Assembly: GCA_017307855.1 (NCBI GenBank)
Contig: JAFKGD010000001.1
Coordinates: 1 to 64,000 of the forward strand
Length of the DNA: 64,000 nt
Source of the DNA: Burkholderiales bacterium
Lineage (GTDB): Bacteria > Pseudomonadota > Gammaproteobacteria > Burkholderiales > Burkholderiaceae_C
Reading direction: 5' to 3'
The notes beneath the pieces are model-generated. The model worked only from the letters and a program-made list of their open reading frames with translations. It was not told the origin of the DNA and searched no databases. Positions within the stretch are counted from its first letter, which is position 1. The number at the start of each line of letters is the position of its first letter. The position numbers and the translations under genes are program-made. Positions 38,789-62,356 of the stretch are shown in pieces.

Positions 38789-40420
<1,632 letters not shown>

Positions 40421-40728: not shown

Positions 40729-41931
40729 ATGTTGACCGATACCAAGCTGCGCAACCTGAAGCCGAAGGACAAGCTCTACAAGGTGAATGACCGTGACGGC
40801 CTCTATGTAGCCGTCACGGCCGCCGGAGCGATCTCGTTCCGCTACAACTACTCGATCCACGGTAGGCAGGAGACCATCACCTTCGGCCGCTACGGTGTCG
40901 GCGGGATCACCCTGGCGGAAGCCCGCGAGCGGTTGGGCGAGGCCAAGAAGATGATCGCGGCCGGGAAGTCGCCGGCCAAGGAAAAGGCGCGGGACAAGGC
41001 CCGCGTCAAGGACGCGGAGACGTTCGGGGCCTGGGCGGAAAAGTGGCTGCGCGGCTACCAGATGGCCGACTCCACCCGCGACATGCGCCGCTCGGTCTAC
41101 GAGCGCGAGCTGAAGCCAAAGTTCGGCAATCAGAAGCTGGTGGAGATCACCCACGAAGACCTGCGCGCGCTGACCGATGCCATCGTCGAGCGCGGCGCGC
41201 CGGCGACGGCCGTGCATGTCCGCGAGGTGGTGCTCCAGGTCTTTCGCTGGGCCATCGAGCGCGGCCAGAAGGTCGAGAACCCGGCCGAGCTGGTACGCCC
41301 GACGACCATTGCCAAGTTCGAGCCGCGCGACCGTGCGCTGACGCCCGACGAGATCGGCCTGATGTACCAGTACATGGAGCGCATCGGCACAGCGCCATCC
41401 ATTCGGGCGGCGGCCAAGCTGCTGCTGTTGACGATGGTGCGCAAGAGCGAGCTGACCAACGCGACCTGGAGCGAGATCAATTTCAGCGACGCGCTTTGGA
41501 CGATCCCGAAGGAGCGGATGAAGCGGCGCAATCCACATCTAGTGTTCCTGTCCCGGCAGGCGCTGGACATCTTCATCGCCCTGAAAACCTTCGCGGGGGG
41601 ATCGGACTACGTGCTTCCGTCGCGGTATGACTCGGACTTACCCATGAGCAGCGCCACGCTCAACCAGGTGCTGACGCTGACGTATCGGCTGGCGCAGAAG
41701 GAAGGGAAGTCGCTCGCCAAGTTCGGGCCGCATGACTTGCGGCGCACGGCCAGTACGTTGCTGCATGAGGCCGGCTACAACACGGACTGGATCGAGAAGT
41801 GCCTGGCGCACGAACAGCGGGGCGTCAGGGCCGTCTACAACAAGGCCGAGTACCGCGAGCAGCGCACGGCGATGTTGCAGGACTGGGCGGACATGATCGA
41901 CGAATGGACGCTGAGACGGCCGAAGGCGTAA
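40729..41931 (+). CDS. int: P4-type tyrosine recombinase (integrase)
   Basis: The protein is 400 residues. An N-terminal DUF4102/arm-binding domain (about residues 1-85) is followed by a SAM-like core-binding domain and the catalytic domain with Arg238 (MVRKSEL), His335-x-x-Arg338 (HDLRRTAS), His361 (CLAHEQRG) and the nucleophile Tyr370 (YNKAEY). It should recombine attP with the guaA 3' end. It reads away from guaA. An AlpA-type regulator/excision factor lies downstream on the opposite strand. Confidence 0.95.
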   Translation: MLTDTKLRNLKPKDKLYKVNDRDGLYVAVTAAGAISFRYNYSIHGRQETITFGRYGVGGITLAEARERLGEAKKMIAAGKSPAKEKARDKARVKDAETFGAWAEKWLRGYQMADSTRDMRRSVYERELKPKFGNQKLVEITHEDLRALTDAIVERGAPATAVHVREVVLQVFRWAIERGQKVENPAELVRPTTIAKFEPRDRALTPDEIGLMYQYMERIGTAPSIRAAAKLLLLTMVRKSELTNATWSEINFSDALWTIPKERMKRRNPHLVFLSRQALDIFIALKTFAGGSDYVLPSRYDSDLPMSSATLNQVLTLTYRLAQKEGKSLAKFGPHDLRRTASTLLHEAGYNTDWIEKCLAHEQRGVRAVYNKAEYREQRTAMLQDWADMIDEWTLRRPKA

Positions 41932-47263: not shown

Positions 47264-47327
47264 TTCGATGAAACCTTGCCGTGGGCAAGCGCGAGCTTGG
47301 TCAAGGCATTGCCTTTCTTTCATCGAA
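47264..47327 (+). promoter_or_regulatory. Long stem-loop in the trbJ leader
   Basis: TTCGATGAAA (47264-47273) and TTTCATCGAA (47318-47327) pair perfectly over 10 bp and enclose a nested hairpin CTTGCC-GTG-GGCAAG. The structure ends 5 bases before the trbJ ribosome binding site. A further 9-bp inverted repeat AGGCCAGGG / CCCTGGCCT lies at 47171-47223. Confidence 0.45.
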
Positions 47328-47341
47328 TGGAGATTGCGACC

Positions 47342-48127
47342 ATGAAGCACGTCCGTTTTTTAGCGGCTAAAACCGCGCTCGCCGCCGCTCTGGCCGGCAG
47401 CATCATCGTCACCCCGGCGCAGGCCGGCATCCCCGTCATCGACGGCGGCAACCTGGTGCAGAACGTCATGACCGCCATTGAGTCGGTGGCGCAGACGCTC
47501 AAGCAGATCGAGCAGTACCAGACTCAATTGCAGCAGTACGAAAACATGCTGCAAAACACCATGGCTCCGGCCGCCTATATCTGGGACCAGGCGCAGTCCA
47601 CCATCAACGGACTGATGGCCGCCACCGACACGCTGAACTACTACCGGAATCAGCTCGGCAGCATCGATGCGTACCTGGGCAAGTTCCAGGATGTGGCCTA
47701 TTACCGTGGTTCGCCTTGCTTCTCGGCCGCTGGGTGCTCGGATGCCGAGCGCGCTGCGATGGAGCAAAACCGCAGCCTGGCGAGCGAGAGTCAGAAGAAG
47801 GCGAACGACGCGCTTTTCAAGGGCCTGGAGCAACAGCAGCGCAACCTTTCCGCCGATGCTCGCCAGCTCGAACGGCTCCAGTCCGCCGCGCAGGGCGCGA
47901 CCGGGCAGATGCAGGCCATCGGCTACGCCAACCAGCTCGCCGCCAACCAGGCAAACCAGCTTCTGCAAATCCGTGGCCTGCTGATCGCACAGCAGAACGC
48001 CGCGACGGCCAGGATGCAGGCGCAGGCCGACCTAGAGGCGCAACAGCAGGCCGCCGGCGCGACTTCCCGGGAGTCCAGGATCGAGCGGACGGCCAACCCG
48101 AGAAACTGGCTCGAACTGACCCGCTGA
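47342..48127 (+). CDS. trbJ: TrbJ (VirB5-type) conjugation protein
   Basis: The protein is 261 residues. A signal peptide (MKHVRFLAAKTALAAALAGS, cleavage after AQA near residue 28) is followed by an amphipathic helical body: VIDGGNLVQNVMTAIESVAQ, then TLKQIEQYQTQLQQYENML. VirB5-like proteins are minor pilus components; in RP4 TrbJ is also needed together with TrbK for entry exclusion. Two cysteines flank CFSAAGC. GGAG precedes the ATG at 47342. The order trbJ-trbK-trbL is as in RP4, but no other mating-pair genes are present. Confidence 0.9.
   Translation: MKHVRFLAAKTALAAALAGSIIVTPAQAGIPVIDGGNLVQNVMTAIESVAQTLKQIEQYQTQLQQYENMLQNTMAPAAYIWDQAQSTINGLMAATDTLNYYRNQLGSIDAYLGKFQDVAYYRGSPCFSAAGCSDAERAAMEQNRSLASESQKKANDALFKGLEQQQRNLSADARQLERLQSAAQGATGQMQAIGYANQLAANQANQLLQIRGLLIAQQNAATARMQAQADLEAQQQAAGATSRESRIERTANPRNWLELTR
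47358..47372. promoter_or_regulatory. KorB-type operator inside the trbJ coding sequence
   Basis: TTTTAGCGGCTAAAA lies at codons 6-11 of trbJ and encodes part of the signal peptide (FLAAKT). It could act as a roadblock or KorB spreading site. Confidence 0.65.
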
Positions 48128-50618: not shown

Positions 50619-50634
50619 GTCATTCCCGGGCCTG

Positions 50635-50806
50635 CATCGTCAAGGGTGACGATGTGCGCTGGCGTGCTCGAGCATCGCCAGATCGGACGATGACGGCCGC
50701 TCTGGCCTTCTCCTTGGCGTGGATCTCGCATCGTCGTTTCTAGCGATGAGATCCAGCGCACCAGAACGGCGCACGTCGAGCTGCAGCACCGCCAGGAATG
50801 GCGATG
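50635..50806. repeat. Array 2 of four 20-bp dyads (CATCGYCA-N4-TGRCGATG)
   Basis: Copies lie at 50635-50654 (perfect 8-bp arms, CATCGTCAAGGGTGACGATG), 50673-50692, 50729-50748 and 50787-50806. Flanking words are shared with array 1: GATGACGGCCGC after one copy, CTCGCATCG before another, and GTCGAGCTGCAGCA before a third, but in a rotated order. Confidence 0.7.
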
Positions 50807-50819
50807 CTGGCCAGCTCTC

Positions 50820-51179
50820 CTACTCGATGCCGTGCATGGCCTTCGCCCGCGCTGCGACGGCCTGTGCGTGTTCGATATAGGCCGGGTCGGCTGTGGCCTT
50901 GGCTTCGGCCAGGAAGGTCCTGATCGCCTCGGCCGAGGTCAGCGTCTCGGCCGGGTCGAAAGGCGTCAGCTCACGGCCAACGGCCGGCGCATCTACCCAT
51001 TCGCGTTGTTCCGGCGGCAGTGGATACACGCCGGCGGCTTCGGCCTCGGCCAGCAGCTCGGCCAGGGTGTAGCGCACCTGGCCAGGCGTGACGGCGCGGG
51101 CCGGGTCGGCCTTCAAGGCGTCATAGGCCGGGCCGACCTTCTCATGCAGCCAGTTTTCCAGGTTCTTCGAGCATGTCAT
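50820..51179 (-). CDS. Chimeric antitoxin-like protein
   Basis: The protein is 119 residues. Residues 1-50 (LENWLHEKVGPAYDALKADP, then ARAVTPGQVRYTLAELLAEA) resemble small antitoxins whose helix carries the AYDALKADPSRAV motif. Residues about 70-119 (LTPFDPAETLTSAEAIRTFL) resemble the start of HigA/GraA-type antidotes (usually PFDPAEYL...), but the helix-turn-helix that should follow is missing. It overlaps the upstream XRE gene (ATGA), so the pair is an operon. No adjacent toxin is visible. Confidence 0.6.
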   Translation of the reverse strand: MTCSKNLENWLHEKVGPAYDALKADPARAVTPGQVRYTLAELLAEAEAAGVYPLPPEQREWVDAPAVGRELTPFDPAETLTSAEAIRTFLAEAKATADPAYIEHAQAVAARAKAMHGIE

Positions 51180-51544
51180 CGGCTGGCCTCATCAAGCATG
51201 GATGCCAGGCGCTCCAGGTCATTGACCGATTGCGAGCGAAAGCGGCCGGTCAGCAGCTCGTGCAGCGCGGCCGGCGTCAATCCGAGAAGCGTAGCCGCTT
51301 GCTCGGTCGACAACTGTTGCGCCTTGATGGCCTCGCCGATCTTGGTGACGAGTCGGGTCTTGACCAGCATTTCGCCGGCGTCGGGATAGCCCAGGTCGGC
51401 ATAGACGTTGGCGCTGCCCTGCTGAATGTTCGGGGTGTCGTCAGCGTTCAGGTCGGCCAGCAGCTCGGCGACTGTGGCGAACCGCCCCGAGATACGGCCG
51501 GCGCGGCTGTCTGCAATTGCTTCTTCGGTTTCCTTCCTGCCCAT
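51176..51544 (-). CDS. XRE-type antitoxin-like regulator (HTH_37)
   Basis: The protein is 122 residues. ANVYADLGYPDAGEMLVKTR, then LVTKIGEAIKAQQLSTEQAA and LLGLTPAALHELLTGRFRSQ, is the pattern of XRE antitoxins normally paired with Gp49/HigB-type RNases. The expected toxin upstream (51545-51873) is not recognisable, so this may be an orphan antitoxin. The start at 51544 gives MGRKETEEAI; an upstream in-frame ATG at 51580 lacks a clear ribosome binding site. Confidence 0.7.
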   Translation of the reverse strand: MGRKETEEAIADSRAGRISGRFATVAELLADLNADDTPNIQQGSANVYADLGYPDAGEMLVKTRLVTKIGEAIKAQQLSTEQAATLLGLTPAALHELLTGRFRSQSVNDLERLASMLDEASR

Positions 51545-51873
51545 CGCACACCTCACGCTGATTTGCCTAGCCCGTCTCATCCAGATGAGGCCACAGAGAG
51601 CGCGGCTGTGAAGGCCAAAGGGTACTACGTTGCGTGTTTTCCCCGGAAGAAGACACGCCGACCACCTTCTTGGCGTAAACCATCTACGACCTGGTGGCTA
51701 AAGCACATGGCCTTGCCATCCAGCCGGTGCCGCGAGCCCGCCGCAACGCATGGCGCCGGCCGAATCCATGGCTTCGCGCACATGAGATTCGGGGTTCACT
51801 TGGGTGGATCAGATGGTAAACTTGGCCAAACTTTGGAAGACTTCGCCGCGCGACACCAAGCGAGCCGCCTGAC
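51545..51873. other. Stretch between antitoxin pair and defence-like operon, no clear gene
   Basis: This 329-bp divergent region should hold the promoters for the antitoxin pair (minus) and the defence-like operon (plus). No open frame has a convincing start and composition. A decayed toxin gene cannot be excluded. Upstream of 51874 there are short symmetric words such as TTGGCCAA (51824-51831). Confidence 0.45.
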
Positions 51874-52074
51874 ATGAACCAACCTGATAGCGAAATTCTC
51901 ACGCTGGATGAAGTGGCGGTCTACCTCAAGGCAGGGAAGAAGACCGTTTACCGGCTGGCCCAGCAGGGGGAGATACCGGGATTCAAGCTGGGCGGCACCT
52001 GGCGGTTTCGTCGCAGCGAGTTGGATCGCTGGATTGCCGCGCAGATAGCCGAGAAAACGCAGGACAAGACATGA
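51874..52074 (+). CDS. Excisionase-family helix-turn-helix protein
   Basis: The protein is 66 residues. ILTLDEVAVYLKAGKKTVYR, then LAQQGEIPGFKLGGTWRFRR and SELDRWI, is the classical excisionase/MerR-like DNA-binding fold. It is the first gene of the right-end operon and overlaps the micro-ORF by ATGA, so it probably regulates the operon rather than excision, although an excision role is possible. Confidence 0.85.
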   Translation: MNQPDSEILTLDEVAVYLKAGKKTVYRLAQQGEIPGFKLGGTWRFRRSELDRWIAAQIAEKTQDKT

Positions 52075-52136
52075 GCGCCCCGAAAAACGATAGCAACCAG
52101 GCGGCCTCGCCCCGAGAGGGGGCTGCACGCCCATGA
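52071..52136 (+). CDS. Micro-ORF of 21 codons coupling the HTH gene to the methyltransferase gene
   Basis: ATG at 52071 overlaps the HTH stop (ATGA), and the TGA at 52134-52136 overlaps the methyltransferase ATG at 52133. The product would be MSAPKNDSNQAASPREGAAR followed by P. It fills the whole gap between the genes, so it either passes ribosomes along or encodes a small peptide. Confidence 0.5.
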   Translation: MSAPKNDSNQAASPREGAARP

Positions 52137-54919
52137 ATGCCGTAGAAATCGAACAAGCCATCACCGACCTCGCGGAGCAGCCGTTCGACCGTGCGGAGTT
52201 CCCCTATGCCTTCCTTGAGGCGTTCGGCAACAAAGCGACGACCATCAAGCGCCTGCGCGCCGGGGCGTCGAACAAGTCCGACCTCAGCGGTGTTCTCCAG
52301 ACCAGCAACATCCACATTCTGACCTGCGACGCCGGGGGGGTGACGCAGACGCTGGCCGCTCTCAAGGCCAGCCCGGCGACGGCCAAGGCCAAGGCGAAGT
52401 TCATCCTCGCCACGGACGGGGTGGACTTCGAGGCCGAAGACCTGACCAGCGGCGAGACCGTTGCCTGCGCCTTCAAGGACTTCCCGGACCACTTCGGCTT
52501 CTTTCTGCCGCTGGCGGGCATCAGCACTGTCCGCCAGATCAGCGAAAACGCCTTCGATATCCGGGCCACCAGCCGCCTGAACCGACTCTACGTCGAACTG
52601 CTGAAGGACAACCCCGAATGGGGCACGGCGGAGCGTCGCCACGACATGAACAACCTCATGGCGCGGCTGATCTTCTGCTTCTTTGCTGAGGACACCGACA
52701 TCTTTGTCGGCAAGGGCCGCTTCACTGAAACCGTCGCGCAGATGAGCGCCAGGGACTCATCGAACACGCACGAAGTTCTCGCCACGCTGTTCCGCACCAT
52801 GAACACCAAGCGCGAGGACCGGGCCGCCGCCAAGATTCCCCGATGGGCCGAAGACTTCCCATACGTCAACGGGCAGTTGTTCTCTGGTGGCGACGAAGTG
52901 CCGCGATTCAGCAAGATCGCCCGGTCCTACCTGCTGCACGTCGGCGGGTTGGATTGGACCAAGATCAACCCGGACATCTTCGGTTCGATGATCCAGGCTG
53001 TCGCCGAGGACGAGGAGCGCGGCGAGCTGGGGATGCATTACACCAGTGTCCCCAACATCCTGAAGGTGCTGAATCCGCTGTTCCTCGACGACCTGCGGGC
53101 CAAGCTTGAAGAGGCAGGCGATAACCCTCGCATGTTGCTGAACCTGCGCAAGCGCATGGCAAGGATCAGGGTCTTCGATCCGGCCTGCGGTTCGGGCAAC
53201 TTCCTTGTCATCGCCTATAAGGAGATGCGCGCCATCGAGGCCGAGATCAACAGGCGACGAGGCGAACCTGACTTGTGTTCGGTTATCCCGCTCACGAATT
53301 TTCGCGGAATCGAGGTGCGTGACTTCCCGGCAGAGATTGCACGCCTTGCGCTGGTTATCGCTGAGTACCAGTGCGACGTGCTCTATCGTGGGCAGAAGCT
53401 GGCCTTGGCCGAGTTTCTGCCCTTGCGCAGCGAGAATTGGATCACCTGCGGCAATGCGTTGCGGCTTGACTGGTTGAGCTTAATGGATGTCGGCGGCTCA
53501 GGGGTGAAGCTAGTTTATGACGATCTTCTGCAAACACCGCTTGATCAGGCTGAGATCGACTTCGAGAACGAAGGCGGCGAGACGTATATTTGCGGGAACC
53601 CGCCTTACGCCGGTCTGAGTTCCCAAACTCCGGAGCAGAAAGCCGACCTCAAGTGGCTCTTCGAAGGCCATAGTCAATACTGGAAGTCGTTCGACTACGT
53701 AATGGGCTGGTTTTGGAAAGCGCATGAGTTCATGCAACATCAGACGGCCAAAGCGGCCTTCGTTGCGACGAACTCAATCTGCCAAGGGCAGCTCGTCCAC
53801 ATGTTCTGGCCGCTGCTCCTGGACGCTTCGTCACGCATCTTCTTTGCCTACTCATCGTTTAAATGGCGCAACCTGGCTGCGCACAATGCTGGCGTCACCG
53901 TCCTGATCATTGGTCTGACCACCGATACAGGTAGGGGGGCACGACTCTTCGAAGCCTCGGATGGTGAAGAGGTCATCGAGAAATTCGTTCCGAACATCAA
54001 CGCATACATAGTGCCCGGACCAAATCTTTACGTTGATGCCGCAAGTAGAGCGCCAACGGGTCGCCCCGACATGTACTGGGGCAACAAGCCCACAGACGGC
54101 GGAAATCTGATCTTGTCGCCCGATGAGGCGCGGCAGATCACCCGTGAGTCGCCGACTGCTAAAAAATTCCTGCGGCCCTACTTTGGTTCGGATGAGTTCA
54201 TCAAGGGTTCGCCGCGGGTTTGCATTTGGGTCACTGATGCTGACGAAAGCGAGGCCAGTTCCGTCCCGAGCCTTGCTCTCCGCTTTGAACAGGTGAGGGA
54301 GTTTCGGGAAAGTAGCAAGGCGAAGGAAACGCGCCCTGCTGCGCAGTACCCGCACAGATTCCGGCAGATTCAGGGCAAACCGGGCAACCAGTCAATCATC
54401 GTTCCGATCCATTCGAGCGAGTCTCGGCCGTATCTTCCAGTTGGGCTGCTCCCAACAGGTGGCATTATTTCCAATGCTGCGTATGGCCTGTACGACGCGC
54501 CTCTATGGAACATGGCGCTCATTGCCTCGCGCCTGCATCTTGTATGGATCGCCACCGTCTGCGGCAAGCTGGAAACGCGCTACCGCTACTCCAACACCCT
54601 CGGCTGGAACACGTTTCCGGTGCCGACGCTGACCGAGAAAAACAAGGCCGATCTCACTCGCTGCGCGGAGGACATCCTGCTGGCGCGGGAGCATCACTTT
54701 CCCGCGACCATCGCGGACCTGTACGACCCCGAAAACATGCCCGCCGACCTGCGCGCCGCCCATGATCGCAACGACGAAGTGCTGGAGCGCGTCTACATCG
54801 GTCGGCGCTTCAAGAACGACACCGAGCGGTTGGAAAAGCTGTTTGACCTCTATACCAAGATGACCGCTTCGGCTGCACCAGCCAAGGGCAAGAAGCGCAA
54901 AGCGGGAGCCAACGCATGA
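52133..54919 (+). CDS. MmeI-type N6-adenine DNA methyltransferase without the nuclease motif
   Basis: The protein is 928 residues. The order is MmeI-like N-terminal domain (about 1-180), helical spacer (about 180-330), methyltransferase with SAM motif VFDPACGSGNFL (347-358) and catalytic NPPY (489-492), target recognition domain (about 610-830), and C-terminal region. In MmeI a D...ExK nuclease site lies in the N-terminal domain; here the aligned stretch reads SDLSGVLQTSNIHILTCDAG and has no ExK. It should methylate adenine in a specific site without cutting. The stop overlaps the helicase start. Confidence 0.9.
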   Translation: MNAVEIEQAITDLAEQPFDRAEFPYAFLEAFGNKATTIKRLRAGASNKSDLSGVLQTSNIHILTCDAGGVTQTLAALKASPATAKAKAKFILATDGVDFEAEDLTSGETVACAFKDFPDHFGFFLPLAGISTVRQISENAFDIRATSRLNRLYVELLKDNPEWGTAERRHDMNNLMARLIFCFFAEDTDIFVGKGRFTETVAQMSARDSSNTHEVLATLFRTMNTKREDRAAAKIPRWAEDFPYVNGQLFSGGDEVPRFSKIARSYLLHVGGLDWTKINPDIFGSMIQAVAEDEERGELGMHYTSVPNILKVLNPLFLDDLRAKLEEAGDNPRMLLNLRKRMARIRVFDPACGSGNFLVIAYKEMRAIEAEINRRRGEPDLCSVIPLTNFRGIEVRDFPAEIARLALVIAEYQCDVLYRGQKLALAEFLPLRSENWITCGNALRLDWLSLMDVGGSGVKLVYDDLLQTPLDQAEIDFENEGGETYICGNPPYAGLSSQTPEQKADLKWLFEGHSQYWKSFDYVMGWFWKAHEFMQHQTAKAAFVATNSICQGQLVHMFWPLLLDASSRIFFAYSSFKWRNLAAHNAGVTVLIIGLTTDTGRGARLFEASDGEEVIEKFVPNINAYIVPGPNLYVDAASRAPTGRPDMYWGNKPTDGGNLILSPDEARQITRESPTAKKFLRPYFGSDEFIKGSPRVCIWVTDADESEASSVPSLALRFEQVREFRESSKAKETRPAAQYPHRFRQIQGKPGNQSIIVPIHSSESRPYLPVGLLPTGGIISNAAYGLYDAPLWNMALIASRLHLVWIATVCGKLETRYRYSNTLGWNTFPVPTLTEKNKADLTRCAEDILLAREHHFPATIADLYDPENMPADLRAAHDRNDEVLERVYIGRRFKNDTERLEKLFDLYTKMTASAAPAKGKKRKAGANA

Positions 54920-56970
54920 GCGACAAGATCAAGTCCGTACCGTCCGTTTCCGTCACCTACGCCCGCAACGGTGCGTCGACCAAGGCCAATGCGCTTGGGA
55001 TGCGGCCCATGCAGGAGCGGGCCTACGAGAAGCGGGGCGAGCAATACCTGCTCATCAAGTCGCCGCCCGCATCGGGCAAGAGCCGTGCGCTGATGTTCGT
55101 GGCACTCGACAAGCTGAAGAACCAAGGCTTGAAGCAGGCCATCATCGTCGTGCCGGAGAAGTCCATCGGTGCCAGCTTCAACGACGAGTCGCTGTCGAAG
55201 TACGGCTTCTGGACCGACTGGCACGTCGAACCCAAGTGGAACCTGTGTAACGCGCCGGGCAACGACAACGGCGGCAAGGTCAAGTCGCTGGGCGCATTCC
55301 TCGAAGGCGACGACAAGGTGCTGGTCTGCACCCATGCGACCTTCCGCTTCGCGGTCGATGCCTACGGCGTGGAGGCTTTCGACGACCGACTGATCGCGGT
55401 CGATGAGTTCCACCACGTTTCGGCCAATCCGGACAACAAGCTCGGCTTGCACCTGGGGCAGTTCTTCGCGCGGGGCAAGACGCACATCGTCGCCATGACA
55501 GGCTCCTACTTCCGTGGCGACGCCGAGGCCGTGCTCGCGCCGCAGGATGAGTCGAAGTTCGATACTGTCACCTACACCTACTACGAGCAGCTCAACGGCT
55601 ACGAGTACCTCAAGCAACTCGACATCGGCTACTTCTTCTACAGCGGGCCTTACGTCGATGACATCCTCAACGTCCTCGATCCCGCCGAGAAGACCATCAT
55701 TCACATCCCGAATGTCAATTCGCGCGAGAGCACGAAGGACAAGATGCGGGAAGTGGAGCACATCATCGAGGCGCTGGGTGAATGGCAGGGCATCGACCCT
55801 GCGACCGGCTTCCAACGTGTCAAGCGCCCCGATGGCCGCGTGCTGCGCATCGCCGATCTCGTCGATGACGATGCCGCCAAGCGCGACCGCGTGTCCGCCG
55901 CGCTCAAAGACCCGGCGCAGAAGAACAACCGCGACCATGTGGACATCATCATCGCGCTGGGCATGGCGAAGGAAGGCTTCGACTGGATTTGGTGCGAACA
56001 TGCGCTCACCGTGGGCTACCGCGCTAGCCTGACCGAGATCGTGCAGATCATCGGCCGAGCTACCCGCGACGCCCCCGGCAAGACCCGCGCGAGGTTCACC
56101 AACCTGATCGCCGAGCCGGATGCGGCGGAGGAAGCTGTCACCGAGGCCGTCAACGATACGTTGAAGGCCATCGCGGCAAGCCTGCTGATGGAGCAGGTTC
56201 TAGCTCCGCGCTTCGAGTTCAAGCCCAAGAACCCCGACAGCGGCCCGACGCCGGGATTTAACTACGGCGAGGGTGGCTACGACGCGGACCGTTGCAATGT
56301 CGGTGTCAATGAGCAGACAGGGGCTTACCAGATCGAGATCAAGGGCCTCGCCGAGCCCAAGAGCAAGGAGGCGGCGCGAATCTGTCAGGAAGACCTGAAC
56401 GAAGTCATTGCGGCCTTTGTGCAGGACAAGCCCACCATCGAGCGCGGCCTGTTCGATGAGGAGCTGGTGCCCGAGGAACTGACGCAGGTTCGCATGGGCA
56501 AGATCATCAAGGACAAATATCCCGAGCTTGACGCCGAAGATCAGGAGGCCGTGCGTCAGCACGCCATTGCTGCCCTCAACCTCACGCAGCAGGCCAAGCG
56601 GCTGGTGACCGAAGGTGAGAGCGATGGAACACCCAACACCGCCCTGATCGACGGCGTGCGCCGCTTTGCGATGGACGTGCGCGAGTTGGACATCGACCTG
56701 ATCGACCGCATCAACCCTTTTGGCGAAGCCTACGCCATCCTTGCGAAGACCATGAGCGAGGACAGCTTGAAGCAGGTTGCGGCGGCCATCTCGGCGAAGC
56801 GCACGAGTCTGACGCCGGACGAGGCGAAGGAGATGGCTGTTCGCGCCGTTCAGTTCAAGAAGGAGCGCGGACGCATTCCTGCACTCGATTCCCAGGATGC
56901 CTGGGAGCGACGCATGGCCGAAGGCGCGGCCGCCTTTATGCGATTCAAGGCGGAGGGGCGCTATGAGTAA
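54916..56970 (+). CDS. Superfamily 2 helicase of the defence-like operon
   Basis: The protein is 684 residues. Motif I is SPPASGKS (49-56), motif II DEFH (163-166), motif III TGS, and motif VI QIIGRATR (377-384). A C-terminal extension of about 270 residues follows (helical, charged). This is the DExH organisation of DNA translocases in type III restriction and related systems; no nuclease motif is evident in the extension. It overlaps the methyltransferase (4 bp) and the GIY-YIG gene (8 bp). Confidence 0.88.
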   Translation: MSDKIKSVPSVSVTYARNGASTKANALGMRPMQERAYEKRGEQYLLIKSPPASGKSRALMFVALDKLKNQGLKQAIIVVPEKSIGASFNDESLSKYGFWTDWHVEPKWNLCNAPGNDNGGKVKSLGAFLEGDDKVLVCTHATFRFAVDAYGVEAFDDRLIAVDEFHHVSANPDNKLGLHLGQFFARGKTHIVAMTGSYFRGDAEAVLAPQDESKFDTVTYTYYEQLNGYEYLKQLDIGYFFYSGPYVDDILNVLDPAEKTIIHIPNVNSRESTKDKMREVEHIIEALGEWQGIDPATGFQRVKRPDGRVLRIADLVDDDAAKRDRVSAALKDPAQKNNRDHVDIIIALGMAKEGFDWIWCEHALTVGYRASLTEIVQIIGRATRDAPGKTRARFTNLIAEPDAAEEAVTEAVNDTLKAIAASLLMEQVLAPRFEFKPKNPDSGPTPGFNYGEGGYDADRCNVGVNEQTGAYQIEIKGLAEPKSKEAARICQEDLNEVIAAFVQDKPTIERGLFDEELVPEELTQVRMGKIIKDKYPELDAEDQEAVRQHAIAALNLTQQAKRLVTEGESDGTPNTALIDGVRRFAMDVRELDIDLIDRINPFGEAYAILAKTMSEDSLKQVAAAISAKRTSLTPDEAKEMAVRAVQFKKERGRIPALDSQDAWERRMAEGAAAFMRFKAEGRYE

Positions 56971-58174
56971 CTCCGATCTTGACGAACTCGCTGCGGAGCT
57001 TGCCGAGTTCGCACCGCCCGAGGCGAAGGCCGGACGGCCGGCCAGTGAGGAGCGCGTCATCGCGGGCTTCGAGGAAATCCAACGCTTCACCGAGAAGCAC
57101 GGGCGTGCGCCGCAGCATGGTGAGGGTCGCTACATATTCGAGCGCCTCTACGCCGTGCGCCTGGACCGCTTGCGTGCGCTCCCGGACTGCCGCGCCCTGC
57201 TGGAGCCGCTGGACTGTCAGAGCTTGCTCGCCGGGGCGCCTACCGTTGCCGCTTCGGCAGATGAAGCCATCGACATCGACGACCTGGCCGCCGAGCTGGC
57301 GGGCGTAGCCGACGCAGACGACATCACGGTCCTACGCCATGTCCGCACCAGCGCCGACAAGCGCGCCGCCGAGGAGATCGCGGATCGCAAGCCTTGCGAA
57401 GACTTCGAGGCGTTCAAGCCACTGTTCGAGCGCGTAGCGACGGAAGTCAAGACCGGCTTGCGCCAGTCCCAGCCCATAGAGGCGGGCCGCCGCGCGATTG
57501 AGGCCGGGGACTTTTTCGTTCTCGATGGAATCACGCTCTACGTCGCAGAGGTCGGCGAACCGCTGAAAACCACCGCCGGGGAAGTGGACCGCCGCCTGCG
57601 CCTCATCTTCTCCAACGGCACCGAAAGCAATCTGCTGTTGCGCTCGCTCCAGCGCGCTTTCTACAACGACCCCGCCGCGCGGCGGCTGGCCTCGCCCGAG
57701 AGCGGACAACTCTCCTTCGGCGGCGAGCTTGAGGCCGATGATGTCGAAAGCGGCACGATCTACGTCCTGCGCTCCCTCTCCGATCATCCCTATGTCGCGC
57801 AGCACCGCGACATCATCCACAAGATGGGCGTGACCGGGGGCAGGGTGGAGACGCGCATTGCCAACGCCGAACACGACTCCACCTACCTGCTGGCGAAGGT
57901 CGAAGTGGTAGCGACCTACAAGCTCGCGGGCGTCAACCGCACCCGGATGGAGAACCTGTTCCACAGACTGTTCGCGCCCGCGCGGTTGAACATCACGATC
58001 AACGACCGCTTCGGTCATCCTGTGCAGCCTGAGGAATGGTTCCTAGTGCCACTTCATGTGATCGACGAGGCGGTTCAGCGCATTCGAGATGGATCGATCA
58101 CCGAGTTTATCTATGACCCGCAGACCGCTCGACTGGTGGGCTACGCGCGGACTAACTATAAGGATGAACCATGA
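56963..58174 (+). CDS. T5orf172 / GIY-YIG nuclease-family protein
   Basis: The protein is 403 residues. A helical N-terminal region (about 1-140) and a middle domain (about 160-245) precede a GIY-YIG domain (about 262-345): GTIYVLRS (264-271), HKMGVTGGRVETRIANA with Arg298, and a downstream Glu in RMENLFHRLF. The T5orf172 subfamily is found with restriction-like and defence systems. As the methyltransferase lacks its nuclease, this is the most likely DNA-cutting subunit. The start overlaps the helicase gene by 8 bp. Confidence 0.88.
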   Translation: MSNSDLDELAAELAEFAPPEAKAGRPASEERVIAGFEEIQRFTEKHGRAPQHGEGRYIFERLYAVRLDRLRALPDCRALLEPLDCQSLLAGAPTVAASADEAIDIDDLAAELAGVADADDITVLRHVRTSADKRAAEEIADRKPCEDFEAFKPLFERVATEVKTGLRQSQPIEAGRRAIEAGDFFVLDGITLYVAEVGEPLKTTAGEVDRRLRLIFSNGTESNLLLRSLQRAFYNDPAARRLASPESGQLSFGGELEADDVESGTIYVLRSLSDHPYVAQHRDIIHKMGVTGGRVETRIANAEHDSTYLLAKVEVVATYKLAGVNRTRMENLFHRLFAPARLNITINDRFGHPVQPEEWFLVPLHVIDEAVQRIRDGSITEFIYDPQTARLVGYARTNYKDEP

Positions 58175-60840
58175 TGGAAAGTCTGCGACCGAAGCAGTCA
58201 GAGGCTCGATCCATGGTCTTTGCAGAAGGGGCGCAGTGGGTCCGTGCTGACTTTCATCTGCATACCCGAGCGGACCGAGAATTCAAGTTCACGGGCGATG
58301 ACAACTTCTACAACAGCAACTATGTGGATGCGTTGGAGAAAGCGGACATCCGATTGGGCGTCATCACCAACCACAACAAGTTCGACTTCGAAGAATTCAA
58401 AGCACTGCGCAAGACGGCCCAGAAGAAGGGTATTGCGCTGCTGCCAGGCGTTGAGTTGTCGGTCAATGACGGGGCTAATGGCATCCACACGCTTGTTGTG
58501 TTCTCCGACGAATGGATCGATGAACACAATTACATCAACCCCTTTCTGACCAGCGCATTCGAAGGTAAAACGCCCGCGCAGTACGAGCAGGAGAACGGGC
58601 GCACTTCATGGTCGCTTCTGGAGACCATCAAGAAGCTGGAAGGCTATCACTGGGACTTCTTCCTTGTCTTCGCCCATGTCGAAGCCCCGAGTGGCCTGTG
58701 GGCGGAGCTGGATGGCGGCCGGCTTACTGAGTTGGGGCAAAACGAGTTCTTCCGACGCAGAACGCTGGCTTTTCAGAAGGTACGCACGCACGACGGCGCA
58801 GGCAAAGACAAACCCTGCCGCACCAAGATTCAAAGCTGGCTACAGAGCTGGTACCCCGCCGAACTGGAAGGCAGCGACCCTAAGAGTGTCGATGAAATCG
58901 GTCGAGGCAAAGCCAGCTACCTGAAGCTGGGCGAACTGTCCTTCGAGGCGGTCAAGTTTGCCTTGAGCGATCCCGCTGGGCGGGTAGCCATGGAGCCGCC
59001 CAAACATCAAGCGTCGCACATCCGCAGCATCCGCTTCGACGGCGGCATCCTCGATGGGCAAGTGCTGCATTTCTCTTCCGAACTCAACACGTTGATCGGC
59101 ATCCGGGGCAGCGGCAAATCATCCATCCTGGAGGCAGTACGCTACGCCCTCGACATTCCACGCGGCGAGAAGGCGCAGGACACCAAGTACAAGGATGAGT
59201 TGATCCGCCATACCCTTGGCAGCGGCGGCAAGGTGACGCTGACAGCATGTGACGTGTACGGACAGGAATTCACCATCTCCCGCATCTTCCGCGAAGCCCC
59301 GAATGTCTATCTGGGCGGCAAGTTGCAACCCGGCGTGTCGATCCGGGAGACCGTACTGCGCCGTCCGATCTACTTCGGCCAGAAGGACCTTTCCAGCACC
59401 GGCGAAGGCTTCGAGACCGATCTGGTGGAAAAGCTGGTTGGCGAGAAGCTGCGTGTGCTGCGTGACGAAATAGAGGTTCAACGCCAGCGCGTGCGTGACG
59501 CTGCTCAGCGCTGGCTCAAGCTCAGCAACACGGCCGAACTCAAGCGCGACTTCGAGACCCAACTAAATGATGCCAACTTCCGTCTGACCAAGTTCGCGGA
59601 GCACGGTGTCGCCGATAAGCTCCAAAAGCGACTTGGCTTCCAGCAGGACGCCACAGCGCTCGCGCGCATGATGGAGCGGGCAGACAGCTTCATCCTCGCT
59701 CTAGGAAGTCTGATTGCCGAGCATGAGGACGAGCTGCGGAACGCAACGAGCTACGTTTCCAAGCAGAACCCGGATTTCTTCACGGCCTACTACGCTGAGT
59801 TCTCCAGCCTCGTTGCCAAGGTCGATCAGCTCAAGCAGATCGAGCGAGAAGCGAACGTCATTGCAGCTCGCCTCAAGACCAAACAGGGCGAATTTGAAGG
59901 CGCAAGCAGGAGCCTTCAGGAGGAGTTCGCACAAGTCGAGCGCCAACTGGCTCAGGAGCTCAAGCAAACCGGCATGACTGCCATCCAGCCGGACGACTTC
60001 CTGGCCCAGCAGCAGCGCAAAACCAAGGCGGAGCAAATGCTGGAGGCGCTGGCCAAGCAGGAATCACAGCAGACCAGCATCCGCGACGCGCTGTTTGCCG
60101 AGATCGACAAACTCAATGAACTATGGCTGCGCGAGTTCAACACCATCAAGGTAGAGCTGGACCGCGTGAACGCTGGCCACACCGCCCTGCAGATCGAAGC
60201 GGACTTCAAGGGCGACAAGGAAGCCGCCATCAGCTTCATGCAGCAGCTCTTCAAGGGCAGCAACATTCGCGAAACCACGCTGCGCGCAGTGATGGAGGAC
60301 TATGCCGATTTCGGCGGCCTCCTGCGTGCCCTGCCGGGAGCCTTGGCGAAGGCCGGCAGCACCCCCGAGGTCTTCGAAAAGACCTTCATGCAGAACCTGA
60401 CCGATTTCGTCACCTGGCAGGTGCCCAACCGCTTCGTCATCCGCTATCGCGGCAAAGAGTTGAAGCACCACTCTCTCGGGCAGCGCGCTTCGGCGCTGTT
60501 GCTGTACGTGCTCAGTCAACGCCAGAACGACGTGATCATCATCGACCAACCGGAAGACGATCTGGACAACCAGACCATTTACGACGATGTGATCAAGCTG
60601 CTACGGGAAATGAAGCCTCACGCCCAATTCATCTTCGCCACCCACAACGCCAACTTCCCGGTGCTGGGTGACGCGGAACAGGTGCACGCCTGCCAATACC
60701 AGGACGAGAAGGTCGCCACGCGAAGCGGCAGCATCGACGCCCGCCCGGTGCAGGACGCCATCATCAACATCATGGAAGGAGGCCAGGAAGCCTTCAACCG
60801 TCGCAAAGAGGTCTACAACCTATGGAAACCACAGAGCTGA
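58171..60840 (+). CDS. TrlF-type protein: PHP phosphoesterase fused to SMC-like ATPase
   Basis: The protein is 889 residues. The PHP domain (about 20-130) has DFHLHTRAD (27-35), ITNHNKFD and LLPGVELSV. The ATPase has Walker A GIRGSGKS (310-317), a long coiled coil (about 430-660), and Walker B VIIIDQPEDDLDNQ (about 788-801) followed by FATHNANFPVLGDAEQ. The layout resembles PHP-plus-ATPase proteins known as single-gene phage-defence factors. ATG at 58171 or 58174 may be used; 58213 is a later option. It overlaps the GIY-YIG stop (4 bp) and the next gene (19 bp). Confidence 0.88.
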   Translation: MMESLRPKQSEARSMVFAEGAQWVRADFHLHTRADREFKFTGDDNFYNSNYVDALEKADIRLGVITNHNKFDFEEFKALRKTAQKKGIALLPGVELSVNDGANGIHTLVVFSDEWIDEHNYINPFLTSAFEGKTPAQYEQENGRTSWSLLETIKKLEGYHWDFFLVFAHVEAPSGLWAELDGGRLTELGQNEFFRRRTLAFQKVRTHDGAGKDKPCRTKIQSWLQSWYPAELEGSDPKSVDEIGRGKASYLKLGELSFEAVKFALSDPAGRVAMEPPKHQASHIRSIRFDGGILDGQVLHFSSELNTLIGIRGSGKSSILEAVRYALDIPRGEKAQDTKYKDELIRHTLGSGGKVTLTACDVYGQEFTISRIFREAPNVYLGGKLQPGVSIRETVLRRPIYFGQKDLSSTGEGFETDLVEKLVGEKLRVLRDEIEVQRQRVRDAAQRWLKLSNTAELKRDFETQLNDANFRLTKFAEHGVADKLQKRLGFQQDATALARMMERADSFILALGSLIAEHEDELRNATSYVSKQNPDFFTAYYAEFSSLVAKVDQLKQIEREANVIAARLKTKQGEFEGASRSLQEEFAQVERQLAQELKQTGMTAIQPDDFLAQQQRKTKAEQMLEALAKQESQQTSIRDALFAEIDKLNELWLREFNTIKVELDRVNAGHTALQIEADFKGDKEAAISFMQQLFKGSNIRETTLRAVMEDYADFGGLLRALPGALAKAGSTPEVFEKTFMQNLTDFVTWQVPNRFVIRYRGKELKHHSLGQRASALLLYVLSQRQNDVIIIDQPEDDLDNQTIYDDVIKLLREMKPHAQFIFATHNANFPVLGDAEQVHACQYQDEKVATRSGSIDARPVQDAIINIMEGGQEAFNRRKEVYNLWKPQS

Positions 60841-61997
60841 TCGACCTGCTCAGCCGGGGCGAGGACAGTCGGCAGCAGTTCAAGACGGACATCAACAATG
60901 CCGACGCCTTGGCAGCAGAGATCGTTGCCTTCAGCAACACCGCTGGTGGTCGCATCTTCATTGGGGTGAACGACGACGGTTCGGTGCGCGGTCTATCCGG
61001 CGCCGACGTTGCTCGTCTCAACATGCTCATCGCCAACGTGGCCTCGCAGGTCGTGCGTCCCGCCGTGAACCCGCTCACGGAAAACGTGCCTCACCCGGCA
61101 GGCACGGTGCTGGTGCTCTCTATCGCTGAGGGCGTCAACAAGCCCTACATGGACAAGAACGGCGCGATTTGGGTGAAGAACGGCTCGGACAAGCGCCGCG
61201 CCACCTCGCGCGAGGAATTGCAGCGCCTGTTCCAGCAGGCGGGTTTGGTGCACGCCGACGAAACGCCCGTAGCGGGCTTGAGCGCGGGCGATGTGGACAT
61301 GCCCTATTTCGAAACCTTCTTCGAGCAGCAATTCGGTGAGCCGCTCGCCCAGCATAACCAGCCGCTGCCGCAGTTGCTGACCAACATGAACCTGATGAAC
61401 CAGGGGCAGCTCAACGTGGCGGGCGGTCTGCTGTTCGCCAAATCACCGCACTACGCGCTACCCGCCTTCGTCGTCAAGGCCGTCGCCTTTGTCGGCACCC
61501 AGATTGAGGACGAACGCTACATCGACAGCCGCGACATCGTCGGCAAGCTGGCCGACGTGTTCCAGCAGACGCTGGGCTTTATCGTCGCTAACACCCGCGC
61601 CGCGCAGGGCGAGCAGGGCTTCAACTCCCAGGGGCAGCCTGAGATTCCCCGCATCGTCTGGGAAGAACTGGTCGCCAACGCCCTCATTCACCGCGACTAC
61701 TTCGTCAGCGCGCCGATCCGCGTACTGGTCTTCGCGGATCGTGTCGAGATCATCAGCCCTGGCCACCTGCCCAACAACCTGACTATCGAGAACATCAAGG
61801 CCGGCAACTCCAATATGCGCAACCCCATCCTGGCGTCCTTTGCCGCCAAGCTCCTGCCTTATCGCGGATTGGGTAGCGGCCTGCTGCGCTCACTGAGGGC
61901 ATGGCCGCAGATCGAACTCATCGATGATCGGTCCGGCAATCTGTTCAAGGCTATCGTGGCGCGTCCCAGCTTGCTGGAGCCGGCCGGAAGTTCTTGA
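60822..61997 (+). CDS. AlbA_2 / Schlafen-like ATP-binding protein
   Basis: The protein is 391 residues. The N-terminal AlbA_2 domain (about 12-135) has EDSRQQFKTD, NTAGGRIFIGVNDDGSVRGL and WVKNGSDKRRATSREEL. The C-terminal part (about 275-385) has WEELVANALIHRDYFVSAPI, VFADRVEIISPGHLPNN and GLGSGLLRS, as in HATPase_c_4 fold proteins. Such proteins bind nucleic acid and ATP; some are regulators, others accompany defence genes. It overlaps the TrlF gene by 19 bp and is therefore in the same operon. Confidence 0.87.
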   Translation: METTELIDLLSRGEDSRQQFKTDINNADALAAEIVAFSNTAGGRIFIGVNDDGSVRGLSGADVARLNMLIANVASQVVRPAVNPLTENVPHPAGTVLVLSIAEGVNKPYMDKNGAIWVKNGSDKRRATSREELQRLFQQAGLVHADETPVAGLSAGDVDMPYFETFFEQQFGEPLAQHNQPLPQLLTNMNLMNQGQLNVAGGLLFAKSPHYALPAFVVKAVAFVGTQIEDERYIDSRDIVGKLADVFQQTLGFIVANTRAAQGEQGFNSQGQPEIPRIVWEELVANALIHRDYFVSAPIRVLVFADRVEIISPGHLPNNLTIENIKAGNSNMRNPILASFAAKLLPYRGLGSGLLRSLRAWPQIELIDDRSGNLFKAIVARPSLLEPAGSS

Positions 61998-62059
61998 CTG
62001 ATCGGCTGGGAGGGGGGTGGATAGACTTCTGGTTTTTAGAACGTCGCTATGGTGTCAGC

Positions 62060-62257
62060 ATGAAACTGCACGAAGAAAACGAACCGTTCTTCATCACCGA
62101 GGACATGGCCGCCGAGATGGCCGCTGCCGGCTACGAGTTCAAACCCCCCGGCCATGCCAGAACGAAGAGCGTCCGCGACCTGTACGGATGGCAGCCCGGG
62201 GAGACTCTGGAAGAGGCCATTGCCCGGCACCAGCGCAGGCAGAGTTCATCCTCTTGA
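62060..62257 (+). CDS. Small hypothetical protein, last gene of the island
   Basis: The protein is 65 residues: KLHEENEPFFITEDMAAEMA, then AAGYEFKPPGHARTKSVRDL and YGWQPGETLEEAI. A TTG start at 61994, overlapping the AlbA_2 gene stop, is the alternative (87 residues). It has acidic, compact composition and no known family. It lies 85 bp before attR. Confidence 0.5.
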   Translation: MKLHEENEPFFITEDMAAEMAAAGYEFKPPGHARTKSVRDLYGWQPGETLEEAIARHQRRQSSSS

Positions 62258-62341
62258 TCTGGGTATGGCACTTTTCATGGCATCAATAGGCCGTCTATTC
62301 GTAAGTTGTTGCTGTTAAACGAGTTTTTATGCTTATAGATA

Positions 62342-62356
62342 ATCGAGTGGGAGTGA
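62342..62356 (+). repeat. Right attachment site (attR core)
   Basis: ATCGAGTGGGAGTGA is an exact copy of the last 15 bases of guaA (40406-40420). Confidence 0.85.

What the first reader, a model, noticed from the sequence alone, without database searches (positions are those of the whole stretch)
51874..62257. Seven-gene overlapping operon: HTH, micro-ORF, nuclease-less MmeI-type methyltransferase, SF2 helicase, GIY-YIG protein, TrlF-type PHP-ATPase, AlbA_2 protein
All genes from 51874 to 61997 overlap their neighbours, so they act as one unit at the end of a mobile island. The set combines modification (methyltransferase), translocation (DExH helicase), a candidate cutter (GIY-YIG) and two extra nucleotide-driven modules (PHP plus SMC-like ATPase; AlbA_2 plus HATPase-like). 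I cannot match this exact set to BREX, DISARM, Druantia, type I/III restriction, or single-gene PHP-ATPase defence. It may be a restriction system with a built-in second, possibly abortive, layer.
Basis: partly seen in the sequence, partly recalled or inferred. Interest (0 to 1): 0.88.

Follow-up and report, generated by a model that had tools for sequence, protein, structure and literature searches.

The report
Restriction operon fused to growth-arrest module
A mobile island joins a known restriction-type gene trio to a portable growth-arrest gene pair that also sits inside unrelated restriction operons, which hints at a shared, movable back-up layer of bacterial defence.

Summary
The operon is real, but it is two modules, each known separately. 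Genes 2-4 (MmeI-family methyltransferase, helicase, GIY-YIG) are the published DnmA(YeeA)-YeeB-YeeC cluster. Genes 5-6 (PHP-ATPase, Schlafen/AlbA_2-HATPase) match TrlF-TrlG of the Photorhabdus temperature-restricting locus, where TrlG mutations abolish growth arrest (PMC7554251); 10 of 11 mutated TrlG positions keep the same residue here. Of 52 TrlF loci, 8 have YeeC directly upstream (7 with the full trio), 1 a remnant, 18 lie in type I restriction operons, 25 show neither, some cut by contig ends. Only 2 of 37 other YeeB loci have TrlF behind YeeC. Four near-identical operons drop to 44-71% DNA identity only across the methyltransferase recognition segment, except between the two sharing an allele: specificity appears to be under selection. 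The operon ends a guaA-integrated island, 40406-62356; 11.7 kb is 99.97% identical in another family. Most likely: restriction first, TrlF-TrlG growth arrest as back-up. The link of this growth-arrest pair with restriction systems appears largely unnoticed. New variant of a known kind; no function was tested here.

The parts
40406..40420 (+). left att copy (3' end of guaA)
   Evidence: exact 15-bp direct repeat, 2 matches in the window, 0 expected; guaA by Pfam at 38789-40420
40729..41931 (+). tyrosine integrase of the guaA island
   Evidence: Phage_integrase PF00589 1.9e-22
51874..52074 (+). HTH_17 / excisionase-type DNA-binding protein, 66 aa, first gene of the operon
   Evidence: PF12728 5.5e-19; NF047737 MAD1 82.4 bits, cut-off 80; 37.5% to the HTH gene that leads the type I version in L209
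52071..52136 (+). micro-ORF, 21 codons, ATGA overlaps on both sides; probable translational relay
   Evidence: length and overlaps kept in the 5 operons checked, peptide varies
52133..54919 (+). DnmA/YeeA: MmeI-family adenine methyltransferase, no PD-ExK motif seen
   Evidence: PF20473, PF20466, PF20464, PF20465, PF20467; NPP and DPACGSGN invariant in 40 rows
53460..54620 (+). specificity segment of the methyltransferase, exchanged between near-identical operons
   Evidence: window against L019, L059, L067 44-69% DNA identity here, 84% or more in the other blocks of the operon apart from a margin block at 80%; L019 and L067 share one allele at 98-99%
54916..56970 (+). YeeB: SF2 (DExH) helicase/translocase
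   Evidence: PF00270, PF04851 over cut-off; Walker A, DEFHH, QIIGRxTR conserved in 48 rows
56960..58174 (+). YeeC: GIY-YIG (T5orf172/MUG113) nuclease candidate, 404 aa
   Evidence: PF13455 2.6e-12, PF10544 9.2e-11; Y268, K288, G290, R299, E331, H335 invariant in 49 rows
58171..60840 (+). TrlF: PHP domain plus SMC/ABC-type ATPase, 889 aa
   Evidence: NF045780 582 bits, cut-off 350; PHP and ATPase motif residues invariant in 27 rows
60822..61997 (+). TrlG-type Schlafen/AlbA_2 plus HATPase_c_4 protein, 391 aa; 19-nt overlap with TrlF; E14-x4-Q19 in place of E-x4-E
   Evidence: PF04326 6.1e-20 at 14-127, PF13749 6.6e-13 at 297-359; TrlG of Photorhabdus 14-128 and 298-365; 10 of 11 TrlG loss-of-function positions with the same residue
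62060..62257 (+). small terminal ORF, 65 aa from ATG, function unknown
   Evidence: conserved in L019, L059, L067, L022; TTG-started extension broken in L019
62342..62356 (+). right att copy; end of the island, 85 nt after the small ORF
   Evidence: matches to L019, L059 and L099 end at 62356 and that to L067 at 62357

Best explanation
A two-layer defence operon on a guaA-integrated island. Layer 1 is a DnmA-YeeB-YeeC restriction-modification-type system: the MmeI-type enzyme methylates adenine at a short asymmetric site set by its recognition domain, and on unmethylated DNA the YeeB motor and YeeC GIY-YIG nuclease are recruited to cut (inferred; a type I-like mode was proposed in print for the B. 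subtilis homologue). Layer 2 is a portable growth-arrest pair, TrlF (PHP plus SMC/ABC-type ATPase) and TrlG (Schlafen/AlbA_2-HATPase), read from the same message. In Photorhabdus TrlG is needed for growth arrest after a temperature up-shift (published). Here its most likely job is a guard or back-up, like PrrC in type I loci: silent while restriction works, released when restriction is blocked or fails, then stopping growth. Which protein carries the catalytic step is open: TrlG is the genetically essential part in Photorhabdus, but this clade lacks one Schlafen catalytic Glu, so TrlG may bind rather than cut nucleic acid, or cut in a changed way. Shown here: gene content, order, overlaps, modularity, recognition-segment exchange, island borders, residue patterns. 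Published: TrlG-dependent arrest. Inferred: all activities of this operon, the trigger, and any control of layer 2 by layer 1.
For: Core matches the published cluster in families and order, motifs kept in 40-49 homologues. The recognition segment alone is exchanged between near-identical operons. AlbA_2 has the TrlG domain layout, and 10 of 11 TrlG missense positions carry the same residue, 9 of the 10 invariant or in at least 95% of 39 rows (0 of 20000 random draws as good; tenth at 95% too, one position read at either of two neighbouring Arg). TrlF starts with a 1- or 4-nt overlap on YeeC in 7 of 7 intact cases and on HsdR in 11 of 13; TrlG overlaps HsdS by 4 nt in 8 of 10 readable loci (L032 with a short TrlG of 148 aa). 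18 of 52 TrlF loci lie in type I operons, while HSDR_N was found in 56 of 143 sampled genomes. A 40% TrlF with a 41% TrlG is again inside a type I operon (L139), and curated records show HTH-HsdR-TrlF-TrlG-HsdS-AAA-HsdM on an IncC plasmid and an E. coli chromosome. PMC7554251 itself notes pieces annotated as type I subunit M between trlR and trlF on plasmid pYR3. Back-up RNases, Schlafen-HATPase among them, in BREX loci and PrrC in type I loci: PMC12839542, PMC3710099 (passages).
Against: No activity was measured. In B. subtilis the trio gave no restriction of plasmid uptake or of three phages (passages). The only published trigger of TRL is temperature, not phage, and no trlF mutations were found there, so TrlF may be dispensable for the arrest. 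25 of 52 TrlF loci show no restriction genes, several cut by contig ends. TrlG of the same Gln type occurs without TrlF (L201, L202, L203, L205; split or cut copies in L207, L208). Three TrlF genes have no TrlG next to them (L041, L057, L068). The Photorhabdus TrlG sequence itself was not compared. The only structure model was weak (mean pLDDT 63); the TrlF job failed.
Confidence: 0.58

Rival explanations
1. Independent cargo: TrlF-TrlG is a self-contained growth-arrest or defence locus that shares the promoter of the restriction genes without cross-talk.
For: The three-gene TRL of Photorhabdus is described without restriction genes and works there; 25 of 52 TrlF loci show none, though several are cut by contig ends; stand-alone pair on a Pseudomonas plasmid; the pair is kept where YeeABC was largely lost, L021 and L022.
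Against: Seamless joints with YeeC, HsdR and HsdS and a place between subunit genes of type I systems are more than promoter sharing needs; 27 restriction-linked loci (18 + 8 + 1 remnant) of 52 are far above chance given, though no random-gene control was run.
Confidence: 0.3
2. One integrated seven-gene machine: all proteins form or serve one complex.
For: Five-gene order in 7 of 52 TrlF loci, counting L062 to its contig end; overlaps; the whole unit moves between families.
Against: No TrlF behind YeeC in 35 of 37 other YeeB loci (two of them cut before or just after YeeC); 43 of 52 TrlF loci without YeeABC or a remnant; L101 has YeeABC followed by an att copy with no TrlF, and L100 carries a UvrD-like helicase gene and a 223-aa gene in the same slot.
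Confidence: 0.06
3. Restriction relic: the trio is a non-restricting remnant with an orphan methyltransferase, as proposed for B. subtilis, and only the growth-arrest part matters.
For: Published negative tests in B. subtilis.
Against: Helicase and nuclease motifs intact across 48-49 homologues; exchange of the recognition segment; recent transfer of the intact operon; PMC9973331 reports from Piel et al. that Vibrio crassostreae homologues affect phage sensitivity (passage; Piel not read).
Confidence: 0.12

Closest known systems
DnmA(YeeA)-YeeB-YeeC of Bacillus subtilis (PMC7261158, PMC9973331; passages)
   Same: same three families, same order; MmeI-family methyltransferase without endonuclease motif, helicase, GIY-YIG/T5orf172
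   Different: here an HTH and micro-ORF lead, and TrlF-TrlG plus a small ORF follow; the B. subtilis set showed no restriction in published tests
Temperature-restricting locus trlR-trlF-trlG of Photorhabdus (PMC7554251; abstract, passages, Discussion)
   Same: TrlF and TrlG families adjacent in this order; TrlG domain layout and 10 of 11 functional positions
   Different: trlR on pYR3 is HTH_73 with no match to our HTH_17 protein; a restriction trio stands between the HTH gene and trlF here; trigger here unknown
Type I restriction operons with the same pair embedded (IncC plasmid L209, E. coli L210) and PrrC-type embedded effectors
   Same: TrlF-TrlG with the 19-nt overlap, an HTH_17 gene first, translational coupling
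   Different: front end is HsdR/S/M, not YeeABC; PrrC is an ABC-ATPase-HEPN protein
Schlafen-HATPase back-up effectors in BREX and BREX-related loci (PMC12839542, passages)
   Same: Schlafen plus minimal histidine-kinase fold beside a modification-based system; proposed back-up role
   Different: 'PHP' has 0 hits there; our front end is not BREX; our TrlG lacks one catalytic Glu
Ppl (PHP-ATPase single-gene defence)
   Same: PHP plus ATPase architecture; NF042955 151 bits
   Different: far below the Ppl cut-off of 1000, passes the TrlF cut-off
PARIS (AriA-AriB)
   Same: works-like idea: ATPase sensor of anti-restriction plus effector (PMC12839542 passage)
   Different: no TOPRIM; only a 37-bit match of TrlF to AriA
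MADS
   Same: HTH protein passes NF047737 MAD1 by 2.4 bits
   Different: only weak local MAD2/MAD3 matches (34 and 53 bits), no other MAD model among the hits listed

Membership tests
DnmA-YeeB-YeeC cluster | MmeI-family methyltransferase, helicase, GIY-YIG/T5orf172 gene in this order | tested here: met
DnmA-YeeB-YeeC cluster | methyltransferase lacks the PD-ExK endonuclease motif | tested here: inconclusive
   no conserved D...ExK seen by eye in residues 55-110 of 40 rows; no MmeI reference or structure aligned
DnmA-YeeB-YeeC cluster | m6A at an asymmetric site; restriction | not testable with these tools
   needs long-read methylome and phage plating
TRL (trlR-trlF-trlG) | trlF and trlG adjacent, TrlG with AlbA_2 and HATPase_c_4 | tested here: met
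   52% and 59% identity to TrlF and TrlG of pYR3, which the TRL paper lists as homologues. Photorhabdus sequences not compared
TRL (trlR-trlF-trlG) | small regulator trlR as first gene | tested here: not met
   an HTH_17 gene stands there; no blastp match to the 79-aa HTH_73 gene of pYR3. So: the TrlF-TrlG pair of TRL, not the whole TRL
TRL (trlR-trlF-trlG) | growth arrest on temperature up-shift | not testable with these tools
   needs cultures
TrlF family (NF045780) | full-length profile match over cut-off | tested here: met
   582.4 bits, cut-off 350
Ppl (NF042955) | profile match over cut-off | tested here: not met
   151 bits, cut-off 1000
Schlafen/AlbA_2 RNase | AlbA_2 domain | tested here: met
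   PF04326 72 bits, cut-off 25.3
Schlafen/AlbA_2 RNase | Glu-x4-Glu and Asp of the catalytic triad | tested here: not met
   E14 and Q19 invariant in 39 of 39 rows; Glu at that place in L173-L192; E210 of SLFN13 essential (PMC5862951 passage). Mapping by sequence spacing only
Type I restriction | HsdR, HsdM, HsdS | tested here: not met
   no HSDR_N, HsdM_N or Methylase_S match among the operon proteins; no HSDR_N match in the window's genome
BREX | PglZ and BrxC/PglY beside PglX | tested here: not met
   only weak PglX matches, at most 25 bits against cut-offs of 400-900; no PglZ/BrxC model among hits
DISARM | DrmA helicase, DrmB, DrmC | tested here: not met
   only partial DrmMI matches of the methyltransferase
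MADS | MAD1 to MAD8 set (set size recalled) | tested here: not met
   MAD1 only over cut-off
PARIS | AriA ATPase with TOPRIM AriB | tested here: not met
   no AriB match to the AlbA_2 partner
Type IIG/IIL MmeI enzymes (PADLOC label REase_MTase_IIG) | nuclease and methyltransferase in one chain | tested here: inconclusive
   PDLC03598 935 bits over nearly the full length, but no PD-ExK seen

The most novel reading that the evidence does not exclude
TrlF-TrlG is a general plug-in guard for modification-based defence: one two-gene growth-arrest cassette that docks, by seamless overlaps, onto structurally unrelated restriction front ends (YeeABC, at least two type I gene orders), is held silent by them and released when they are inhibited. 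The heat-triggered arrest of Photorhabdus would then be the same effector seen without its restriction partner, and the temperature-restricting locus would be a defence effector in origin.
Probability: 0.3. Interest if true: 0.8.

Novelty: new variant of a known kind. Interest (0 to 1): 0.57.

Why it matters
The DnmA-YeeB-YeeC cluster has been called a relic. A version that exchanges its recognition segment and was transferred almost unchanged between bacterial families is the right one in which to test restriction. TrlF-TrlG has been described as a temperature-restricting locus; finding the same pair inside restriction operons in 27 of 52 loci, in E. coli (38 of 5426 genomes with this DNA) and on plasmids (208 records with some DNA match, 39 covering at least 80% of the query) suggests another reading: a growth-arresting back-up for restriction. 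If so, one cassette serving different restriction systems would be a general answer to phage anti-restriction proteins.

Tried and rejected
Rejected: BREX, DISARM, MADS, PARIS, type I, Ppl as names for the operon (membership table). Rejected: one obligate seven-gene system. Rejected: the TTG start of the last ORF. Considered: chance linkage; YeeB is in 12 of 369 and 28 of 399 sampled genomes, own genome included, and HSDR_N in 56 of 143, too few for 27 of 52 linked loci by accident. No random-gene control was run.

Led nowhere or weak: the AlbA_2 model has mean pLDDT 63 and was not used; the promoter/terminator scan gave no more than shuffles; viral contigs gave 2 relatives of AlbA_2 and 24 of TrlF, most of them distant; co-divergence of TrlF and AlbA_2 is only moderate (Mantel r 0.58, 2 of 2000 permutations as high, 41 loci; 0.50 without L061). 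The TrlF tree is a quick tree with 25 of 46 inner branches open; starred branches alone force at least 4 changes for the YeeABC label and 2 for type I. On pYR3 only 8 of the 11 TrlG positions fit at a suitable offset.

Rows dropped: the tree used 48 of 52 loci plus the window, 7 of them without context label; 38 loci plus the window in the AlbA_2 alignment; 26 loci plus the window in the TrlF alignment; 41 loci in the Mantel test. AlbA_2 frames with stops (L031, L055), short (L032, L063, L053 at a contig end) or odd (L066) were among those left out.
Full report
OBSERVATION. Between HTH and methyltransferase lies a micro-ORF of 21 codons, 52071-52136, with ATGA at both joints; length and joints are kept in the five operons checked (window, L019, L059, L067, L100) while the peptide changes; in L021, which has lost YeeABC, a chimeric micro-ORF of 23 codons again ends in ATGA on the TrlF start. 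I read it as a translational relay (inference). The final small ORF most likely starts at 62060.

SURROUNDINGS. guaA ends at 40420. Its last 15 bp recur at 62342-62356 (2 matches, 0 expected in shuffles), and this is the longest exact match between the two border stretches compared. An integrase follows guaA; a RepC replication protein, a NikA-like protein and TrbL lie further on, and a sulfate permease follows the island. The island is 40406-62356 and the operon is its last cargo. In L019, L059 and L067 a guaA-end copy stands 85 nt after the small ORF (that of L059 has one change). A genome of another family in the same order (G679, L099) shares 11,734 bp, 50623-62356, at 99.974% identity, ending at the last base of the repeat: recent transfer.

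THE FIRST MODULE. Pfam finds all five MmeI domains in the methyltransferase. The trio matches DnmA(YeeA)-YeeB-YeeC. Passages of PMC7261158 and PMC9973331 say that DnmA makes m6A at GACGAG, that Morgan et al. had noted endonuclease-less MmeI homologues next to yeeB and yeeC and suggested a type I-like system, that Makarova et al. had listed YeeB and YeeC homologues as putative antiphage genes, that the B. subtilis trio showed no restriction, and that V. crassostreae homologues affected phage sensitivity. The Morgan and Makarova papers were not held; Piel was not read. In the 37 other YeeB loci found and fetched a methyltransferase match was found upstream in 34 (two of the three others start at the helicase) and the GIY-YIG gene downstream in 36 (the other is cut). 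Motifs are kept: DPACGSGN and NPP in 40 methyltransferases; Walker A, DEFHH and QIIGRxTR in 48 helicases; Y268, K288, G290, R299, E331 and H335 in 49 GIY-YIG proteins.

EXCHANGE OF SPECIFICITY. The window, L019 (Pseudomonas), L059 (Xanthomonas) and L067 (Pigmentiphaga) carry the whole operon. In 200-column blocks from 51.86 to 62.2 kb their pairwise DNA identity is 84-100%, apart from a margin block at 53260 (80-100%), but in the blocks from 53460 to 54620 it is 44-69% for the window against the others and 49-71% for L059 against L019 and L067, while L019 and L067 stay at 98-99% to each other. In the protein this covers about residues 440-840, including the MmeI target-recognition domain (629-833). 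So there are three recognition alleles in four operons, which suggests selection on sequence specificity.

THE SECOND MODULE. A genome scan with TrlF gave 52 loci. AlbA_2 follows in 47; the overlap is 19 nt in 44 and 28-31 nt in 3; 2 of the 5 others are cut by contig ends and 3 lack it (L041, L057, L068). In 8 loci the GIY-YIG gene is directly upstream (7 with the whole trio, L022 with its last part only); L021 keeps the HTH and a short GIY-YIG remnant; 18 loci lie in type I operons, in the orders HsdR-TrlF-AlbA-HsdS-(AAA)-HsdM (12, some cut), HsdM-RhuM-HsdS-TrlF-(AlbA)-HsdR (5) and one other (L061); 25 show neither, several of them cut by contig ends. TrlF starts with a 1- or 4-nt overlap on YeeC in 7 of 7 and on HsdR in 11 of 13 cases; after HsdS there is a gap of 11-12 nt in three loci, a 4-nt overlap in one, and one was not readable; AlbA_2 overlaps HsdS by 4 nt in 8 of 10 readable loci. 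The type I form is annotated on IncC plasmid pNDM-1_Dok01 and in the chromosome of E. coli JJ2434, in both beside Tn7-like transposition genes, and on a Klebsiella plasmid as far as HsdS, where the stretch ends. More distant TrlF proteins, over the TrlF cut-off (L193-L196, L200), are again followed by AlbA_2 genes, and L139 has the pair at about 40% identity in a type I operon. On the TrlF tree the three contexts need at fewest 12 changes (shuffled mean 19.1): context has switched repeatedly, but related loci tend to share it, and most branches are weak.

WHAT IS KNOWN OF THE SECOND MODULE. The name TrlF leads to PMC7554251 (abstract, passages and the first part of the Discussion seen). In Photorhabdus laumondii the operon trlR-trlF-trlG arrests growth after a shift to 36 C; spontaneous mutants that escape mostly carry missense or stop changes in trlG, none were seen in trlF, deletion of the operon removes the arrest and the whole operon on a plasmid restores it. 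TrlG has AlbA_2 at 14-128 and HATPase_c_4 at 298-365; our protein has them at 14-127 and 297-359. Of 11 mutated missense positions, 10 carry the same wild-type residue in our protein, at offset 0 before residue 60 and -1 after; A193 does not fit. The paper lists homologues on plasmid pYR3, with pieces annotated as type I subunit M between trlR and trlF; the pYR3 proteins are 52% (TrlF) and 59% (TrlG) identical to ours. So genes 5-6 are the TrlF-TrlG pair, but our HTH_17 gene is not trlR, which on pYR3 is HTH_73. HTH_17 leads both our operon and the type I version in L209 (37.5% identity).

SLOTS. YeeABC loci have variable genes at two places. Between methyltransferase and helicase a gap of at least 400 bp is found in 19 of the 34 loci where both ends were seen; contents include RhuM (tblastn) and, in the 8 slot proteins scanned, a YhcG-type nuclease, two AlbA_2 proteins, an AbiJ N-terminal domain and an AAA_15 ATPase, with 3 unmatched. 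Behind YeeC lies TrlF-TrlG (window, L099, L102, which is the same contig as L023), a UvrD-like helicase gene plus a 223-aa gene (L100), or nothing before an att copy (L101). RhuM and ABC-ATPase effectors in restriction operons are described in PMC3710099 (passages).

ACTIVE SITES OF LAYER TWO. In 27 TrlF rows H29, H31, H68, E95 and the motifs GIRGSGKS and DQPEDDLDN are invariant. In 39 AlbA_2 rows E14, Q19 and D52 are invariant. Relatives at 41-59% identity whose N-terminus could be read, and TrlG of pYR3, also have Gln; the relatives in L173-L192 have Glu. SLFN13 E205A and E210A were absolutely inactive (PMC5862951, passage). I equate Q19 with E210 from the E-x4-E spacing; no structure supports this. 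Since TrlG is needed for arrest in Photorhabdus and S16, next to E14, is one of the needed residues, the AlbA_2 domain matters even so; whether it cuts, binds or senses is open.

MECHANISM AND VERDICT. Layer one as restriction-modification is likely. Layer two as a growth-arrest module is supported by the published TrlG phenotype; its role as guard or back-up of restriction is inferred from its repeated seamless place in restriction operons and by analogy to PrrC and PARIS (passages); independent cargo is a real rival. The literature check is limited: ten searches of an open-licence library without preprints. Apart from the pYR3 remark I saw no paper on TrlF-TrlG in restriction operons, but lists were capped and a preprint on bacterial Schlafens cited in PMC12839542 was not read. 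I file the operon as a new variant of a known kind: two known modules in a combination that, as far as these searches go, is undescribed.

Noticed in passing
L209 4023-14793; L210 5023-15793: Type I operon with embedded TrlF-TrlG and an extra AAA gene, led by an HTH_17 gene, next to TnsD-type Tn7-like transposition genes on an IncC plasmid and in an E. coli chromosome.
   Followed up: partly
L039 14969-16081; also L032, L034, L040, L042, L043, L044, L052: About 371-aa protein matching the C-terminal part of AAA_13 between HsdS and HsdM in 8 of the 18 type I loci, a second accessory ATPase in the same operons.
   Followed up: no
L201, L202, L203, L205: Gln-type AlbA_2 genes alone among ordinary-looking chromosomal genes, without TrlF or restriction genes nearby.
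   Followed up: partly
L137 4418-12431: HsdR-AlbA_2-HsdM-HsdS order on a viral-collection contig: Gln-type AlbA_2 in a type I operon without TrlF.
   Followed up: no
L101 11499-15154: guaA-end copy right behind YeeABC, then a C5-methyltransferase-like gene and a Vsr-like gene (read from the translations only): the slot without TrlF.
   Followed up: partly
window 42014-47379: Four TTTTAGCGGCTAAA palindromes in the plasmid-derived part of the island; they recall KorA-type operators (from memory).
   Followed up: no
window 44336-45394: RepC plasmid replication gene inside a chromosomally integrated island.
   Followed up: no
L116 11149-11979 (reverse strand), L100 7162-7995, L102 5183-6016: 277-aa proteins between methyltransferase and helicase; the one scanned (L116) has no Pfam match.
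   Followed up: partly
G051, G065, G026, G022, G042: Other AlbA_2 genes lie within about 5 kb of HSDR_N genes in five sampled genomes, so Schlafen-type genes beside type I systems may be general.
   Followed up: no
L213 4691-9149 (Yersinia ruckeri pYR3): HTH_73 gene, 465-base gap, TrlF and TrlG overlapping by 22 nt; the gap is where the TRL paper reports pieces annotated as type I subunit M.
   Followed up: partly
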